Shown here piece after piece: positions 36,104 to 48,300 of a stretch of DNA of 52,921 bases. How positions within the stretch are numbered: position 1 is the stretch's first letter; each line of letters starts with the position of its first letter. The position numbers and the translations under genes are program-made. The stretch comes from a virus: IMG/VR virus record IMGVR_UViG_3300022868_000023, positions 1-52,921 of that record; one strand, 5' to 3'. The notes beneath the pieces were generated by a model. The model was not told where the DNA came from. It ran no database searches and saw only the letters and a list, made by a program, of their open reading frames with translations.

Positions 36104-36340
36104 ATGATTACAAGTCTCTATGTTTGGTATTCTGATCATGCCAATCCCGCCTATCGTGCATGTGTCTATCGGGCCAACGGCAAGGGGCGGATGCGGGAAA
36201 TTAGCGCCCACAGGGCATACAGCCTGGCGTTGCTTGCCAACAGGCTCGTCAAACAGCACAAAGTACGCCTCTACCCCTTCTGCAGCGATGGCTGCGTTGG
36301 CTGGAGTGCATCGAGGATAGACAAGAGTTATATGTATTAG
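36104..36340 (+). CDS. Small basic hypothetical protein
   Basis: 78 residues starting at 36104; begins one base after the previous stop. Basic, helical middle (HRAYSLALLANRLVKQ). Unknown. Confidence 0.5.
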   Translation: MITSLYVWYSDHANPAYRACVYRANGKGRMREISAHRAYSLALLANRLVKQHKVRLYPFCSDGCVGWSASRIDKSYMY

Positions 36341-36362
36341 GTTTTATTGTTTTCCTCCTTCT

Positions 36363-36401
36363 TGCGGCGGGTGTCGGCCTGGACACCCGGCATCCGCCCA
36401 A
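36363..36401 (+). other. Stem-loop between the Cys-rich cluster and the first RNA/GIY-YIG module
   Basis: GGGTGTC and GACACCC pair around GGCCTG near 36,369-36,388, with GCGG/CCGC outside. No T-run follows. Possible terminator of the Cys-rich operon. Confidence 0.4.
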
Positions 36402-36459
36402 GACCAGTACAGGCAGTTGAATGGAGGAATAGCAGGATTGCACACTTGACCTCCTGGAT

Positions 36460-36488
36460 TTGACTTTTTTACGGTTCTGTGGTATAAT
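36460..36488 (+). promoter_or_regulatory. Promoter of RNA/GIY-YIG module copy 1
   Basis: TTGACT (36460-36465), 17 bases, TATAAT (36483-36488). The second half of the spacer (GTTCTGTGG) equals that of copies 2 and 3, the first half differs; the exact duplication with copy 2 starts inside the spacer. Confidence 0.8.
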
Positions 36489-36942
36489 GCAAAAGTGCCA
36501 GAATTGGAAAAGGGCTTTCTTTCTGCAGAAGGCTCAATATAACAATCGTAGAATAACCCCTACGTGCGACGGCTCTCTTCCGACTCTGGCACACAGACAG
36601 GCTGACTGCATCGCGTGCGTAGGGGTTTTCTGTATCAACAGGGGATGCAGAAAATGACAAAGGGTACTTATGAGATTAAGAACAGGTTGGATGGGATGGC
36701 GTATGGGGGGAGTTCTGGGGACATTGAGCAACGGTGGATGGCACACCTCTGGATGCTTCGCAACGACAGACATCACTGTGCGCATCTACAGAATGCGTGG
36801 AACAAGTATGGTGAGGACGTGTTTGAATTTAGCGTGCTTGAAGTGATTGAAGACCCAGATGAGCGTTTGGCGGCTGAACAGGCGTGGCTTGACATACATC
36901 ACGCCAACAAGACTTGCTACAACGTTGCCATTACAGCGGGGA
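36483..36942 (+). repeat. Direct repeat, copy 1 of 2 (with 47841-48300)
   Basis: By eye the two stretches are identical from the -10 region through the RNA leader and the first about 96 codons of the GIY-YIG gene, then diverge sharply. Recent duplication, gene conversion or transposition of the RNA-plus-catalytic-domain unit. Confidence 0.8.
36489..36656 (+). ncRNA. Pseudoknotted leader RNA, copy 1, ahead of a GIY-YIG gene
   Basis: Two interlocking helices. Helix A: GTGCCAGA (36495-36502) with TCTGGCAC (36585-36592), extended inward to about 18 pairs. Helix B: AACCCCTACG (36555-36564) with CGTAGGGGTT (36618-36627). A5', B5', A3', B3' alternate, so this is a pseudoknot. A third hairpin GGGCTTTCT/AGAAGGCTC (36512-36535) lies inside A. 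After B, TTTTCTG (36626-36632) can pair with CAGAAAA (36648-36654), covering the start codon and looping out AGGGG; this competes with the end of helix B by two bases. The copy at 41998 keeps all of these with different bases. Confidence 0.75.
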
Positions 36943-37292
36943 CGGCGGGGCCCATGGCAGAAGAGACGAAGCGCAGGATGAGCATAAGCCACATAGGTAG
37001 CAAACATAGCGAACAGACTAAACTCAAGCAGAGCATAGCCCACCTAGGCGAACTCAACCCCAGTTGGGGGAAGCACCATACTGAAGAGGCCAAGCAAAAA
37101 CGACGCACGGCCTTGAAGGGCAAGAAGCGCTTGCCATTTACTGAGGAGCACAAGCAGAATATAAGTAAGGCTAAACTGGGCAAGAAGCTCCAGCCGTTCA
37201 CCGAAGAGCACAAGCGCAATATAAGCGCGGCGGTTAAGCGGTGGTGGCTAAAGAAGAAAGCCGCTGATGCTGAAGGCGAAGTGGCAGACTGA
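36654..37292 (+). CDS. GIY-YIG homing endonuclease, RNA-module copy 1
   Basis: 212 residues from the ATG at 36654. GTYEIKN and MAYGGSSGDIEQRW are the GIY and YIG motifs with the catalytic Arg; LAAEQAWLDIHH holds the catalytic Glu; CYNVA ends the nuclease core. NUMOD3-like repeats follow (GKHHTEEAKQKRR, PFTEEHKQNISKAKLGKK). A basic Lys/Arg-rich tail ends it. The nuclease half is identical to the gene at 48012, the DNA-binding half is not. Confidence 0.87.
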   Translation: MTKGTYEIKNRLDGMAYGGSSGDIEQRWMAHLWMLRNDRHHCAHLQNAWNKYGEDVFEFSVLEVIEDPDERLAAEQAWLDIHHANKTCYNVAITAGTAGPMAEETKRRMSISHIGSKHSEQTKLKQSIAHLGELNPSWGKHHTEEAKQKRRTALKGKKRLPFTEEHKQNISKAKLGKKLQPFTEEHKRNISAAVKRWWLKKKAADAEGEVAD

Positions 37293-37296
37293 GGAC

Positions 37297-37325
37297 TTGA
37301 CAAACAGGGCGGCATGTGGTATAAT
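37297..37325 (+). promoter_or_regulatory. Sigma70-like promoter
   Basis: TTGACA (37297-37302), 17 bases, TATAAT (37320-37325), 6 bases after the GIY-YIG stop; restores expression downstream of the inserted module. CAATCGATTG at 37349-37358 follows. Confidence 0.85.
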
Positions 37326-37372
37326 GGAAACGGAACTGAACAGTTGTACAATCGATTGAACAGGGAGGCAAT

Positions 37373-37552
37373 ATGAGAACAGAGCGTGACAGAGAAATTG
37401 AGTGCGAAGACTGTTTGTGGAACGTGATTGATCCCGAGGACGACTACTGTGCCCTCGGAGAATCTGGGCCCGATGCGTCCTGCTTCGTGCCCGCAACCGA
37501 AAAGGAGGATGAGGAAGATGACAAAGAGACAAATGCAGTTCGCGTGGGATGA
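37373..37552 (+). CDS. 59-residue Cys-containing protein
   Basis: MRTERDREIECEDCLWNVID, then CALG and CFV: four Cys that could hold one zinc. Acidic tail. Start after CAATCGATTGAACAGGGAGG. Overlaps the next gene by 35 bases in another frame. Confidence 0.45.
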   Translation: MRTERDREIECEDCLWNVIDPEDDYCALGESGPDASCFVPATEKEDEEDDKETNAVRVG

Positions 37553-41968: not shown

Positions 41969-41997
41969 TTGACAAAATCGCGAATCTGTGGTATACT
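41969..41997 (+). promoter_or_regulatory. Promoter of RNA/GIY-YIG module copy 3
   Basis: TTGACA (41969-41974), 17 bases (AAATCGCGAATCTGTGG), TATACT (41992-41997). Spacer identical to that of the copy at 47818 although the RNA behind it differs strongly. Confidence 0.8.
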
Positions 41998-42170
41998 GGG
42001 GTAGAATTCTGGCAAGATGGAAAGCGGGCTTTTTCTTTGCAGCATAGCCCAATATACAATCGTAGATTACCCCCTACGTGCCCGCACCAACCCTCTTTTC
42101 ATCTTGCCATGAGAAGGCTTGCTGCCTGGCCGTAGGGGGTTTTCTGTATCGACTAAGGATGCAGAAGATG
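41998..42170 (+). ncRNA. Pseudoknotted leader RNA, diverged copy, ahead of a GIY-YIG gene
   Basis: Same architecture as 36489-36656. Helix A: TGGCAAGATG (42010-42019) with CATCTTGCCA (42100-42109), extended by GAAAG/CTTTT to 15 pairs. Internal hairpin GGGCT (42026-42030) with AGCCC (42046-42050). Helix B: ACCCCCTACG (42069-42078) with CGTAGGGGGT (42131-42140). Start-codon hairpin TTTTCTG with CAGAAGA. Helix A has an almost wholly different sequence from copies 1 and 2 yet stays paired, which is covariation. Unpaired blocks AATATA, CAATCGTAGA and TTTTCTGTATC are conserved. Confidence 0.75.
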
Positions 42171-42893
42171 ATAGCAGGGATTTATGAGATCAAGAACAGG
42201 CTAGACAGGATGGCGTATGGCGGGAGTTCAGGGAACATAGAGAGGTGGTGGGGGGATCATCGCCGGATGCTTCGTAATGATAAGCATCACTGCATACATT
42301 TGCAACGCGCCTGGAACAAGTATGGCGAGGACGTATTTGAGTTTCGCGTACTTGAAGTAATTGAAGACCACGATGAACGAAGGGCGGCAGAGCAGGAATG
42401 GCTTGACATACACCACGCCAATAAGACTTGCTATAATATTGCGATTACGGTAGGGAATGCAGGGCCTATGGCCAAAGAAACTAAGCAAAAGATCGCTACG
42501 CGCCTGACGGGCCACAAGCGCACTAGCGACGAGTGCCGCGCGATAAGCGAACGCATGGTGGGCAAGCAATACAGCCTGGACTGCAAGCATACTGATGAGC
42601 AGAACCGCGCGAAGAGCGAGCGTATGATGGGCCATCCAGTTTCTGACGCGACCAGGCAAAAGATAGGGGCTGGTAACGCTGGACCATATCCTGCATTCAT
42701 TCACAGAGACACGGGCGAGATCATCCCCGCTGGCAGAAATATGGAGCGATTGTGCCGAGAGCGCGGGCTGCAACCATCCTGCATGTGTGACGTAAAGAAC
42801 GGCAAGCAGTCTCATCACAAGGGATGGATGCCGCTTATTGAAATGAAGTCTTTGCACAAAGACTTTTCAAAACAGAGAGGAGATATGGAATGA
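42168..42893 (+). CDS. GIY-YIG homing endonuclease, RNA-module copy 3
   Basis: 241 residues from the ATG at 42168. GIYEIKN and AYGGSSGNIERWW are the motifs; RAAEQEWLDIHH carries the catalytic Glu; CYNIA ends the core. NUMOD3-like segments follow, then FIHRDTGEIIPAGRNMERLC, the NUMOD1-like module shared with the leftward gene at 7498. The final codons include an AGTCTTTGCACAAAGACT palindrome (42847-42864), encoding KSLHKDF. Confidence 0.87.
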   Translation: MIAGIYEIKNRLDRMAYGGSSGNIERWWGDHRRMLRNDKHHCIHLQRAWNKYGEDVFEFRVLEVIEDHDERRAAEQEWLDIHHANKTCYNIAITVGNAGPMAKETKQKIATRLTGHKRTSDECRAISERMVGKQYSLDCKHTDEQNRAKSERMMGHPVSDATRQKIGAGNAGPYPAFIHRDTGEIIPAGRNMERLCRERGLQPSCMCDVKNGKQSHHKGWMPLIEMKSLHKDFSKQRGDME

Positions 42894-47817: not shown

Positions 47818-47846
47818 TTGACAAAATCGCGAATCTGTGGTATAAT
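47818..47846 (+). promoter_or_regulatory. Promoter of RNA/GIY-YIG module copy 2
   Basis: TTGACA (47818-47823), 17 bases, TATAAT (47841-47846). Spacer as in the copy at 41969 and close to the head-operon promoter at 13908. Confidence 0.85.
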
Positions 47847-48300
47847 GCAAAAGTGCCAGAATTGGAAAAGGGCTTTCTTTCTGCAGAAGGCTCAATATAA
47901 CAATCGTAGAATAACCCCTACGTGCGACGGCTCTCTTCCGACTCTGGCACACAGACAGGCTGACTGCATCGCGTGCGTAGGGGTTTTCTGTATCAACAGG
48001 GGATGCAGAAAATGACAAAGGGTACTTATGAGATTAAGAACAGGTTGGATGGGATGGCGTATGGGGGGAGTTCTGGGGACATTGAGCAACGGTGGATGGC
48101 ACACCTCTGGATGCTTCGCAACGACAGACATCACTGTGCGCATCTACAGAATGCGTGGAACAAGTATGGTGAGGACGTGTTTGAATTTAGCGTGCTTGAA
48201 GTGATTGAAGACCCAGATGAGCGTTTGGCGGCTGAACAGGCGTGGCTTGACATACATCACGCCAACAAGACTTGCTACAACGTTGCCATTACAGCGGGGC
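47841..48300 (+). repeat. Direct repeat, copy 2 of 2 (with 36483-36942)
   Basis: About 460 identical bases covering promoter -10, RNA and nuclease domain. The flanks on both sides are unrelated, so the repeated unit itself moved or was converted. Confidence 0.8.
47847..48014 (+). ncRNA. Pseudoknotted leader RNA, copy 2, ahead of a GIY-YIG gene
   Basis: Sequence identical to copy 1 by eye. Helix A 47853-47860 with 47943-47950; helix B 47913-47922 with 47976-47985; internal hairpin 47870-47893; start-codon hairpin ends on the ATG at 48012. Confidence 0.75.

What the first reader, a model, noticed from the sequence alone, without database searches (positions are those of the whole stretch)
36460..37292. 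Promoter, pseudoknotted RNA and GIY-YIG nuclease form a repeated module
Three GIY-YIG genes (36654, 42168, 48012) are each preceded by a promoter and a roughly 165-base RNA with two interlocking helices, an internal hairpin and a hairpin over the start codon. The diverged copy keeps the helices with different bases: helix A is GTGCCAGA/TCTGGCAC in one and TGGCAAGATG/CATCTTGCCA in the other; helix B gains a C-G pair. That is covariation, so the RNA fold is under selection. I know of RNA partners for IscB/TnpB nucleases and of group I introns carrying GIY-YIG genes, but not of a free-standing pseudoknot leader of this type. It may be an autoregulatory leader, a ribozyme, or an RNA that works with the nuclease.
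Basis: partly seen in the sequence, partly recalled or inferred. Interest (0 to 1): 0.88.

Follow-up and report, generated by a model that had tools for sequence, protein, structure and literature searches.

The report
Pseudoknot leader on phage homing nucleases
Some phage copies of a selfish DNA-cutting gene carry a knotted, terminator-like RNA leader that keeps its shape while its letters change, which suggests a so far undescribed switch that keeps the nuclease in check.

Summary
Three GIY-YIG homing-endonuclease genes (36654, 42168, 48012) each follow a near-consensus promoter and a ~160-nt leader with two interlocking helices (A, B). Copies 1 and 3 are identical, so the window holds two independent leaders. 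The same anatomy in other letters precedes a fourth paralogue (F3, related contigs) and GIY-YIG genes of other phage contigs (F4, F6, F7; weaker candidates F5, F8, F9). A location-blind scan of 2.84 Mb ranked GIY-YIG leaders first to fifth. In 56 hand-aligned pairs between related leaders, 21 changed on both sides, none on one side, none broke. Rfam has no match. Of 197 distinct upstream regions of relatives, 6 pass (3 of 1432 controls), so the RNA is no obligate nuclease partner.

A U-run follows or overlaps the end of helix B in F1-F8. My reading: an attenuator. Transcription starts near helix A, mostly stops at B, and leaks into the nuclease; in some copies a hairpin also takes in the ribosome site. 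Termination is inferred, not shown. Tests speak against an intron, HDV ribozyme or omega-RNA. A nuclease-binding RNA, as in type III toxin-antitoxin loci, is not excluded.

The parts
36460..36488 (+). promoter of copy 1, TTGACT-17-TATAAT
   Evidence: (11 of 12)
36495..36502 (+). helix A, 5' arm GTGCCAGA, at the predicted transcription start
   Evidence: its first base is the 7th after the -10 hexamer; start site not mapped
36504..36509 (+). inner extension of helix A (helix C), 5' arm TTGGAA
   Evidence: pairs with 36578-36583; in the A-fold
36512..36535 (+). internal hairpin P2 (GGGCTTTC..GAAGGCTC), loop with CTGCAG
36536..36548 (+). conserved stretch AATATAACAATCG between P2 and helix B
   Evidence: in the block shared with F2; F2 and F4 share the block too (local alignment z 7.5)
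36557..36564 (+). helix B, 5' arm CCCCTACG
36578..36592 (+). helix C 3' arm TTCCGA and helix A 3' arm TCTGGCAC
36618..36625 (+). helix B, 3' arm CGTAGGGG
36626..36633 (+). U-run TTTTCTGT directly after helix B (terminator-like)
   Evidence: a T-run follows or overlaps the end of B in F1-F8
36626..36654 (+). hairpin P4 (TTTTCTGTATC..GATGCAGAAAA) that takes in the SD AGGGGA and reaches the first base of the start codon
   Evidence: z -4.1 against mononucleotide shuffles
36654..37292 (+). GIY-YIG / NUMOD3 homing endonuclease, copy 1 (212 aa)
41969..41997 (+). promoter of copy 2, TTGACA-17-TATACT
42010..42024 (+). copy 2 helix A 5' arm TGGCAAGATG plus extension GAAAG
42026..42050 (+). copy 2 internal hairpin P2
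42069..42078 (+). copy 2 helix B 5' arm ACCCCCTACG
42095..42109 (+). copy 2 helix A 3' arm CTTTT+CATCTTGCCA
   Evidence: CATCTTGCCA 42100-42109; CTTTT before it read (the script found an earlier CTTTT)
42131..42147 (+). copy 2 helix B 3' arm CGTAGGGGGT and U-run
42140..42168 (+). copy 2 hairpin P4
   Evidence: z -4.4
42168..42893 (+). GIY-YIG gene, copy 2 (241 aa); W at the position of I-TevI R27
47818..47846 (+). promoter of copy 3, TTGACA-17-TATAAT
   Evidence: 12 of 12
47853..47991 (+). copy 3 leader, identical to copy 1: A 47853-47860/47943-47950, B 47915-47922/47976-47983, U-run 47984-47991
47984..48012 (+). copy 3 hairpin P4
48012..48653 (+). GIY-YIG / NUMOD3 gene, copy 3 (213 aa)

Best explanation
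A self-contained expression control unit of a free-standing phage homing endonuclease: promoter, pseudoknotted attenuator, nuclease gene. Transcription starts at (F1, F3, F4) or near (F2) helix A's 5' arm. As the RNA grows, helix A ties the 5' end to the apical part of the downstream stem-loop, and helix B closes just as the polymerase reaches a U-run, so most transcripts would stop there as an ~80-135 nt RNA with both ends sealed. Leaky read-through gives the nuclease mRNA; in some copies a further hairpin takes in the Shine-Dalgarno and reaches the start codon. In most families helix A competes with, or docks onto, a local hairpin (H) on top of helix B, so A may tune how readily the B terminator forms. 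Shown by sequence: promoters (F1-F4), helices A and B with compensatory change, U-run following or overlapping the end of B (F1-F8), hairpin H in six of nine families, P4 in F1/F2/F5 and marginally F3, lack of the leader in most relatives examined. Inferred: transcription start, termination, read-through, the role of A, and any signal that shifts the balance.
For: Families outside the window's copies: F3 = L019/L053, same phage group; F4 = L248, F6 = L410, F7 = L440/L441 from other contigs; candidates F5 = L029, F8 = L451, F9 = L473. Scan of 2,835,228 held bases, both strands, T-run required at the end of B: 13 distinct matches at 50 or more; ranks 1-5 (the fifth tied with the sixth) and 8 stand directly before a GIY-YIG start. 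Scan of 197 distinct GIY-YIG upstream regions without asking for T: 6 at 52 or more (three of the window's phage group, three others) against 3 of 1432 control windows; a T-run follows or overlaps the end of B in these 6, and in none of the 5 control windows at 50 or more. Six helix comparisons between related leaders, 56 pairs: 35 unchanged, 21 changed on both sides, 0 one-sided, 0 broken. The leader trait clusters on the protein tree: 5 changes for 9 tips (three of them candidates) against 8.9 shuffled, 0 of 500 as low. Hairpin H beats shuffles (p 0.07 or less) in F2, F4, F6, F7, F8, F9. The anatomy matches RCd22-abiF, where a start site 168 nt before abiF, a hairpin plus four U, and read-through were measured (passages of PMC12373285).
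Against: No RNA data. The simple terminator scan did not call helix B (its rule allows loops of 3-8 only); before F6 it called another short stem ending at the same U-run, and in the window the calls were no more than in shuffles (10 against 11.0). U-runs are short (four to six U) and in F4-F8 partly inside the helix; in F9 wholly so. An antiterminator hairpin hiding B's 5' arm is no better than shuffled sequence in 9 of 9 families. Hairpin H is not supported in F1, F3, F5. P4 fails in F4, F6, F7 and is marginal in F3, F8, F9. No sigma-70 promoter was found before F6 or F7. F5, F8, F9 score 45-47, within the control range (control maximum 61). F8/F9 leaders do not reach z 3 in local alignment; their pairing as relatives rests on their proteins (84% identity) and the 5' part.
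Confidence: 0.5

Rival explanations
1. Translational autoregulation: the pseudoknot is a binding platform for the nuclease or another phage protein that blocks initiation, as gp32 does on T4 gene 32 mRNA; no termination is involved.
For: Helix B ends 16-47 nt before the gene match in the nine leaders; P4 takes in the ribosome site in F1, F2 and marginally F3 (in F5 it folds wholly upstream of the ATG). Several HEGs of T4-like phages have RBS-sequestering hairpins (passages of PMC2988022); gene 32 has a 5' pseudoknot (passages of PMC3014915). Related leaders keep some loop sequence (F2/F4 z 7.5, F6/F7 z 11.7).
Against: Does not explain the U-run at the end of B in families that share few letters; P4 is not general.
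Confidence: 0.25
2. RNA that binds and restrains (or arms) the nuclease, as in type III toxin-antitoxin loci: an abundant terminated pseudoknot RNA, with the nuclease made by read-through.
For: Order promoter, pseudoknot RNA, U-run, nuclease resembles the type III order (passages of PMC5086642). Leaders of paralogues differ more than their genes (F1/F3 leader 0.59 against gene 0.80; F8/F9 0.57 against 0.79), as expected for orthogonal pairs.
Against: No tandem repeats in copy 1's leader; nuclease is GIY-YIG; 191 of 197 upstream regions of relatives score below 52; F6/F7 leaders are more alike than their genes (0.70 against 0.62). No RNA-binding was tested.
Confidence: 0.13
3. Remnant or compact form of a group I intron or of an HDV-like ribozyme.
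For: Order of strands (A5, B5, A3, B3) resembles group I P3/P7 and HDV P1/P2 (recalled); T4 I-TevI, a relative, lies in a group I intron (record note).
Against: No Rfam match at gathering score in the window or in seven loci; around copy 1 at E up to 10 only two weak matches, both inside or at the end of the gene. Helix A varies from 7 to 14 bp; 0-1 nt between A3 and B3 in F6/F7 leaves no room for HDV P4.
Confidence: 0.04
4. DNA-level inverted repeats (operator or recombination sites) rather than RNA structure.
For: I-TevI represses its own promoter through a DNA operator (passages of PMC2988022); copies recombine or are joined in other contigs.
Against: Interlocked arms in fixed order, a place between promoter and start codon, the U-run on one side and turnover of letters on both arms fit RNA better.
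Confidence: 0.06

Closest known systems
RBS-hairpin leaders of T4-type homing endonucleases (I-TevI, II, III, segB, mobE; seg43(25))
   Same: structured leader before a phage homing endonuclease, ribosome site in a hairpin, own promoter in several cases (passages of PMC2988022)
   Different: those are single hairpins in the passages seen; here an interlocked A/B pair runs into a U-run and recurs in several phage contigs
RCd22 leader RNA of abiF (Clostridioides difficile phage phi027)
   Same: promoter, ~100-130 nt RNA, hairpin with four U, then RBS and gene, no promoter between (passages of PMC12373285)
   Different: AbiF is another protein; RCd22 carries two copies of an abiF motif; termination there is measured, here inferred
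Type III toxin-antitoxin loci (toxIN, cptIN, tenpIN)
   Same: pseudoknotted RNA, terminator, nuclease in that order (passages of PMC5086642)
   Different: no tandem repeats, different nuclease; here helix B itself abuts the U-run; inhibition untested
T4 gene 32 autoregulatory pseudoknot
   Same: 5' pseudoknot in a phage mRNA leader (passages of PMC3014915)
   Different: helices here are 7-14 bp, with a U-run at the end of B; no long unstructured run to the RBS was seen

Membership tests
GIY-YIG homing endonuclease | GIY-YIG domain above curated cut-off | tested here: met
   PF01541 in 3 of 3 window proteins
GIY-YIG homing endonuclease | Arg27 and Glu75 of I-TevI (catalytic roles recalled) | tested here: inconclusive
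   E75 in 11 of 11; R27 in 10 of 11, copy 2 has W (R one place earlier)
Group I intron | match to group I covariance models | tested here: not met
   at gathering score, at E up to 10 for 36300-37400: no match
HDV-like ribozyme | P1 of fixed ~7 bp and a P4 segment between P1 3' and P2 3' (recalled) | tested here: not met
   A 7-14 bp; 0-1 nt between A3 and B3 in F6, F7; no Rfam match
IscB/TnpB omega-RNA | RuvC/HNH nuclease with an RNA in nearly all members (recalled) | tested here: not met
   GIY-YIG; 6 of 197 upstream regions at 52 or more
Type III toxin-antitoxin | promoter, pseudoknot RNA, terminator, nuclease order | tested here: inconclusive
   order present, terminator judged by anatomy only
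Type III toxin-antitoxin | tandem repeat antitoxin and ToxN/CptN/TenpN toxin | tested here: not met
   no tandem repeat in 36440-36700; Pfam GIY-YIG
Type III toxin-antitoxin | RNA inhibits the nuclease | not testable with these tools
   needs biochemistry
Transcription attenuator leader | stable stem running into a U-run between promoter and start codon | tested here: met
   U-run follows or overlaps the end of B in F1-F8 (in F9 it lies inside the helix); promoter found for F1-F4, not for F6, F7
Transcription attenuator leader | mutually exclusive antiterminator | tested here: inconclusive
   hairpin H against A supported in 6 of 9; hairpin against B5 in 0 of 9
Transcription attenuator leader | observed premature termination | not testable with these tools
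   no RNA data
T4-type HEG leader | RBS or start codon in a hairpin | tested here: met
   copies 1-3 and marginally F3; not in F4, F6, F7
T4 gene 32 type operator | gene product binds the pseudoknot | not testable with these tools
   needs binding assay

The most novel reading that the evidence does not exclude
The terminated leader is a separate, stable pseudoknot RNA that binds its own GIY-YIG nuclease and holds it in check, one orthogonal RNA per nuclease copy: a type III-like RNA restraint on a homing endonuclease, so that the selfish gene spreads without harming its phage.
Probability: 0.12. Interest if true: 0.88.

Novelty: new variant of a known kind. Interest (0 to 1): 0.62.

Why it matters
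How homing endonucleases in phages are kept from doing harm is known for a few T4-type genes, in the passages seen mostly through single hairpins and operators. Here a control cassette accompanies the nuclease in several phages, keeps its fold and changes its letters. Rfam has no match for it, so it is a candidate RNA family with a starting set of covarying members; if the RNA also binds the nuclease, it would be a new kind of RNA restraint on a DNA-cutting selfish gene.

Tried and rejected
Motif patterns for the conserved stretch gave no new family; candidates at the anchors looked like chance.

An antiterminator hairpin at B's 5' arm was proposed after and dropped after (mean z 0.31). P4 as a universal part was dropped. 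HDV and group I readings were dropped. Some pseudoknot candidates upstream of relatives (L030/L032/L035, GC-rich ones far from the start) were taken as chance because the helices seem to lie in coding sequence, judged by eye. MAFFT did not align some helix arms in F6/F7 and F8/F9, so one search uses hand-set registers; helices were chosen because they pair, so their being paired is no test, only the both-sided changes and the blind scans are. In the leader alignments, F2/F9 (z 4.0) and F2/F3 (z 3.4) come from short runs out of register, so z of 3-4 means little there. In F6 the A 5' arm nearly repeats the gene's own start (CATGGAAAGC), so A's 3' arm could also pair there; not noticed by eye in the others, left open. 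Relatives in prokaryote genomes: 53 of the 91 loci L539-L629 were scanned, all 53 scored, best 41; the 38 left out were mostly weak matches with short ORFs. Ten phage or plasmid relatives were viewed; nine were scanned, best 50.0, 164 nt from the gene match and without a T-run.

Full report
WHAT WAS CLAIMED. Three GIY-YIG genes in a phage fragment, each behind a promoter and an RNA with two interlocking helices. The window is a 52,921-base virus record; of ten proteins compared with PHROGs, three on the minus strand are head or packaging proteins (major head protein, portal, terminase).

THE OBSERVATION. Confirmed. The promoters match 11-12 of 12. Helix A starts at the 7th base after the -10 hexamer in copies 1 and 3, so at the likely first base; in copy 2 at the 13th. 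Helices A, A's inner extension C, the internal hairpin, helix B, a U-run and a hairpin at the ribosome site follow. Copies 1 and 3 are the same over 466 bp, so the window alone gives two leaders, in which A covaries (3 of 7 pairs) and B hardly varies.

MORE COPIES. A protein search found a fourth paralogue in related contigs with a strongly changed leader (F3 = L019/L020/L053, sequence). Scanning upstream of relatives with a pseudoknot descriptor gave F4 (L248), F6 (L410) and F7 (L440/L441). F5 (L029), F8 (L451) and F9 (L473) are candidates: their scores (45.5, 47, 45) fall inside the control range. F8 and F9 gain weight because their proteins are close (84% identity; tree distance 0.18) and their A helices differ by exactly two of seven pairs, both changed on both sides; two random changes in one arm would restore all seven pairs with probability 0.011. 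Their leaders as wholes do not reach z 3. F8 and F9 also have what I recall as Bacteroidota-type promoter elements upstream; this was seen by eye only.

CONTROLS. (a) 238,602 bases of G000, G001 (all but its last 528 bases) and G002, both strands: 17 hits, 9 of them the leaders, 7 reverse complements of leaders, 1 chance. (b) 2,835,228 held bases, T-run required: 13 distinct hits at 50 or more; ranks 1-5 (the fifth tied with the sixth at 55) and 8 are GIY-YIG leaders (F7, F6, F4, F2, F3, F1), seven are elsewhere. The held set is rich in GIY-YIG loci, though the stretches just before their starts are, by my estimate, only a few percent of it. (c) 197 distinct upstream regions against 1432 shifted windows on both strands, no T-run required: at 52 or more 6 against 3 (0.41 expected); at 44 or more 12 against 32 (4.4 expected). 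Of the six, three belong to the window's phage group and three to other contigs. So six are secure, a few more are likely, and most relatives examined have no such leader. The five control windows at 50 or more show no T-run at the end of B.

COVARIATION. Six comparisons between related leaders, hand-aligned: F8/F9 A 7 pairs (2 changed on both sides), F6/F7 A 12 (6), F6/F7 B 13 (7), F1/F2 B 8 (0), F2/F4 B 9 (3), F1/F2 A 7 (3). Total 56 pairs: 35 same, 21 two-sided, 0 one-sided, 0 broken. F1/F2, F2/F4 and F6/F7 leaders are homologous in sequence (local alignment z 24.3, 7.5 and 11.7). Leaders differ more than their genes in F1/F2 (slightly: 0.70 against 0.76), F1/F3, F2/F3 and F8/F9; F6/F7 is the reverse (0.70 against 0.62).

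HERITABILITY. On a tree of 205 GIY-YIG domains the nine leader tips (candidates included) need 5 changes; shuffled labels need 8.9 on average and never 5 or fewer in 500. The leader is thus inherited in a few clades, with leaderless neighbours. Two other GIY-YIG genes of the window, behind portal and terminase genes on the minus strand, have no such leader.

FOLDS. The nested B fold and the A fold are close in energy in F1-F4 (B/A: -46.6/-42.3, -46.6/-43.8, -43.4/-43.4, -44.0/-47.8 kcal/mol); F6-F9 favour B, F5 favours A. Inside B a local hairpin H uses or displays A's 3' arm; against shuffled loops it is supported in F2, F4, F6, F7, F8, F9 (p 0.07 or less) but not F1, F3, F5. In F8 and F9 A's 3' arm sits in, or almost wholly in, the loop of H, so the pseudoknot there is the transcript's 5' tail docking into a hairpin loop. 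A hairpin hiding B's 5' arm is not supported in any family. The hairpin P4 at the ribosome site is strong in F1, F2 and F5 (in F5 wholly upstream of the ATG), marginal in F3, F8, F9, absent in F4, F6, F7 (mononucleotide shuffles).

MECHANISM. The recurring features are the A-B interlock and a U-run at the end of B some 16-47 nt before the gene match, with a promoter just before A where one was found (F1-F4). That is the layout of a leader RNA that mostly terminates before a gene. The measured precedent is RCd22-abiF (passages of PMC12373285). I commit to attenuation at 0.5, translational operator 0.25, nuclease-binding RNA 0.13.

KNOWN RELATIVES. Passages of PMC2988022: I-TevI, II, III, segB and mobE have RBS hairpins, seg43(25) a hairpin before the RBS; seven free-standing T4 endonucleases appear promoterless while others use promoters upstream of them. 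[quoted passage not shown] Paper searches for GIY-YIG with pseudoknot (no paper with all four terms; three papers for the pair, seen as listings only, on introns by their titles) and (listings) showed no report of such a leader in the held open-access library; subscription journals are not covered.

LIMITS. All new members are metagenomic contigs; no named phage with the leader was found among the ten phage or plasmid relatives viewed, of hundreds listed. Everything about expression is inferred.

Noticed in passing
window 23947-44673 (17 sites, e.g. 25316, 37349, 44272): Perfect palindrome CAATCGATTG occurs 17 times (0.01 expected), only in this part, several times between a promoter and a start codon: probably an operator of this phage.
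   Followed up: partly
window 36476-36941 and 47834-48299: Identical 466-bp block covering -10 region, leader and catalytic domain, with different C-terminal halves after it: cassette exchange or recent conversion.
   Followed up: yes
L008 and L012: These contigs join copy 1's upstream flank directly to copy 3's gene and downstream flank, lacking the ~11.4 kb between; L012 through the identical block, L008 just before the promoter. Recombination or assembly effect.
   Followed up: partly
window 42168-42893: Copy 2 has W where I-TevI has R27 (catalytic, recalled), with an R one residue earlier; the ten other aligned proteins keep R27. Possibly impaired although its leader is kept.
   Followed up: partly
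window 8334-7498 and 11591-10752, minus strand: Two more GIY-YIG genes lie behind the portal and terminase genes without the leader.
   Followed up: partly
window 13936-13910, minus strand: Nearly the same promoter as copies 2 and 3 (TTGACAAAATCGCG..CTGTGGTATA) stands before the minus-strand gene block.
   Followed up: no
window 36564-36547, 42078-42061, 47922-47905, minus strand; L248 1431-1415: On the opposite strand, helix B's 5' arm and the bases before it form a terminator-like hairpin in copies 1-3 and in L248; the total number of such calls in the window is no more than in shuffles.
   Followed up: no
L410 1390-1520 and L440 590-610: In F6 helix A's 5' arm nearly repeats the nuclease's own start (CATGGAAAGC), so A's 3' arm could also pair with the start codon; before F6 and F7 there are palindromes overlapping or abutting helix A's start (by eye).
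   Followed up: no
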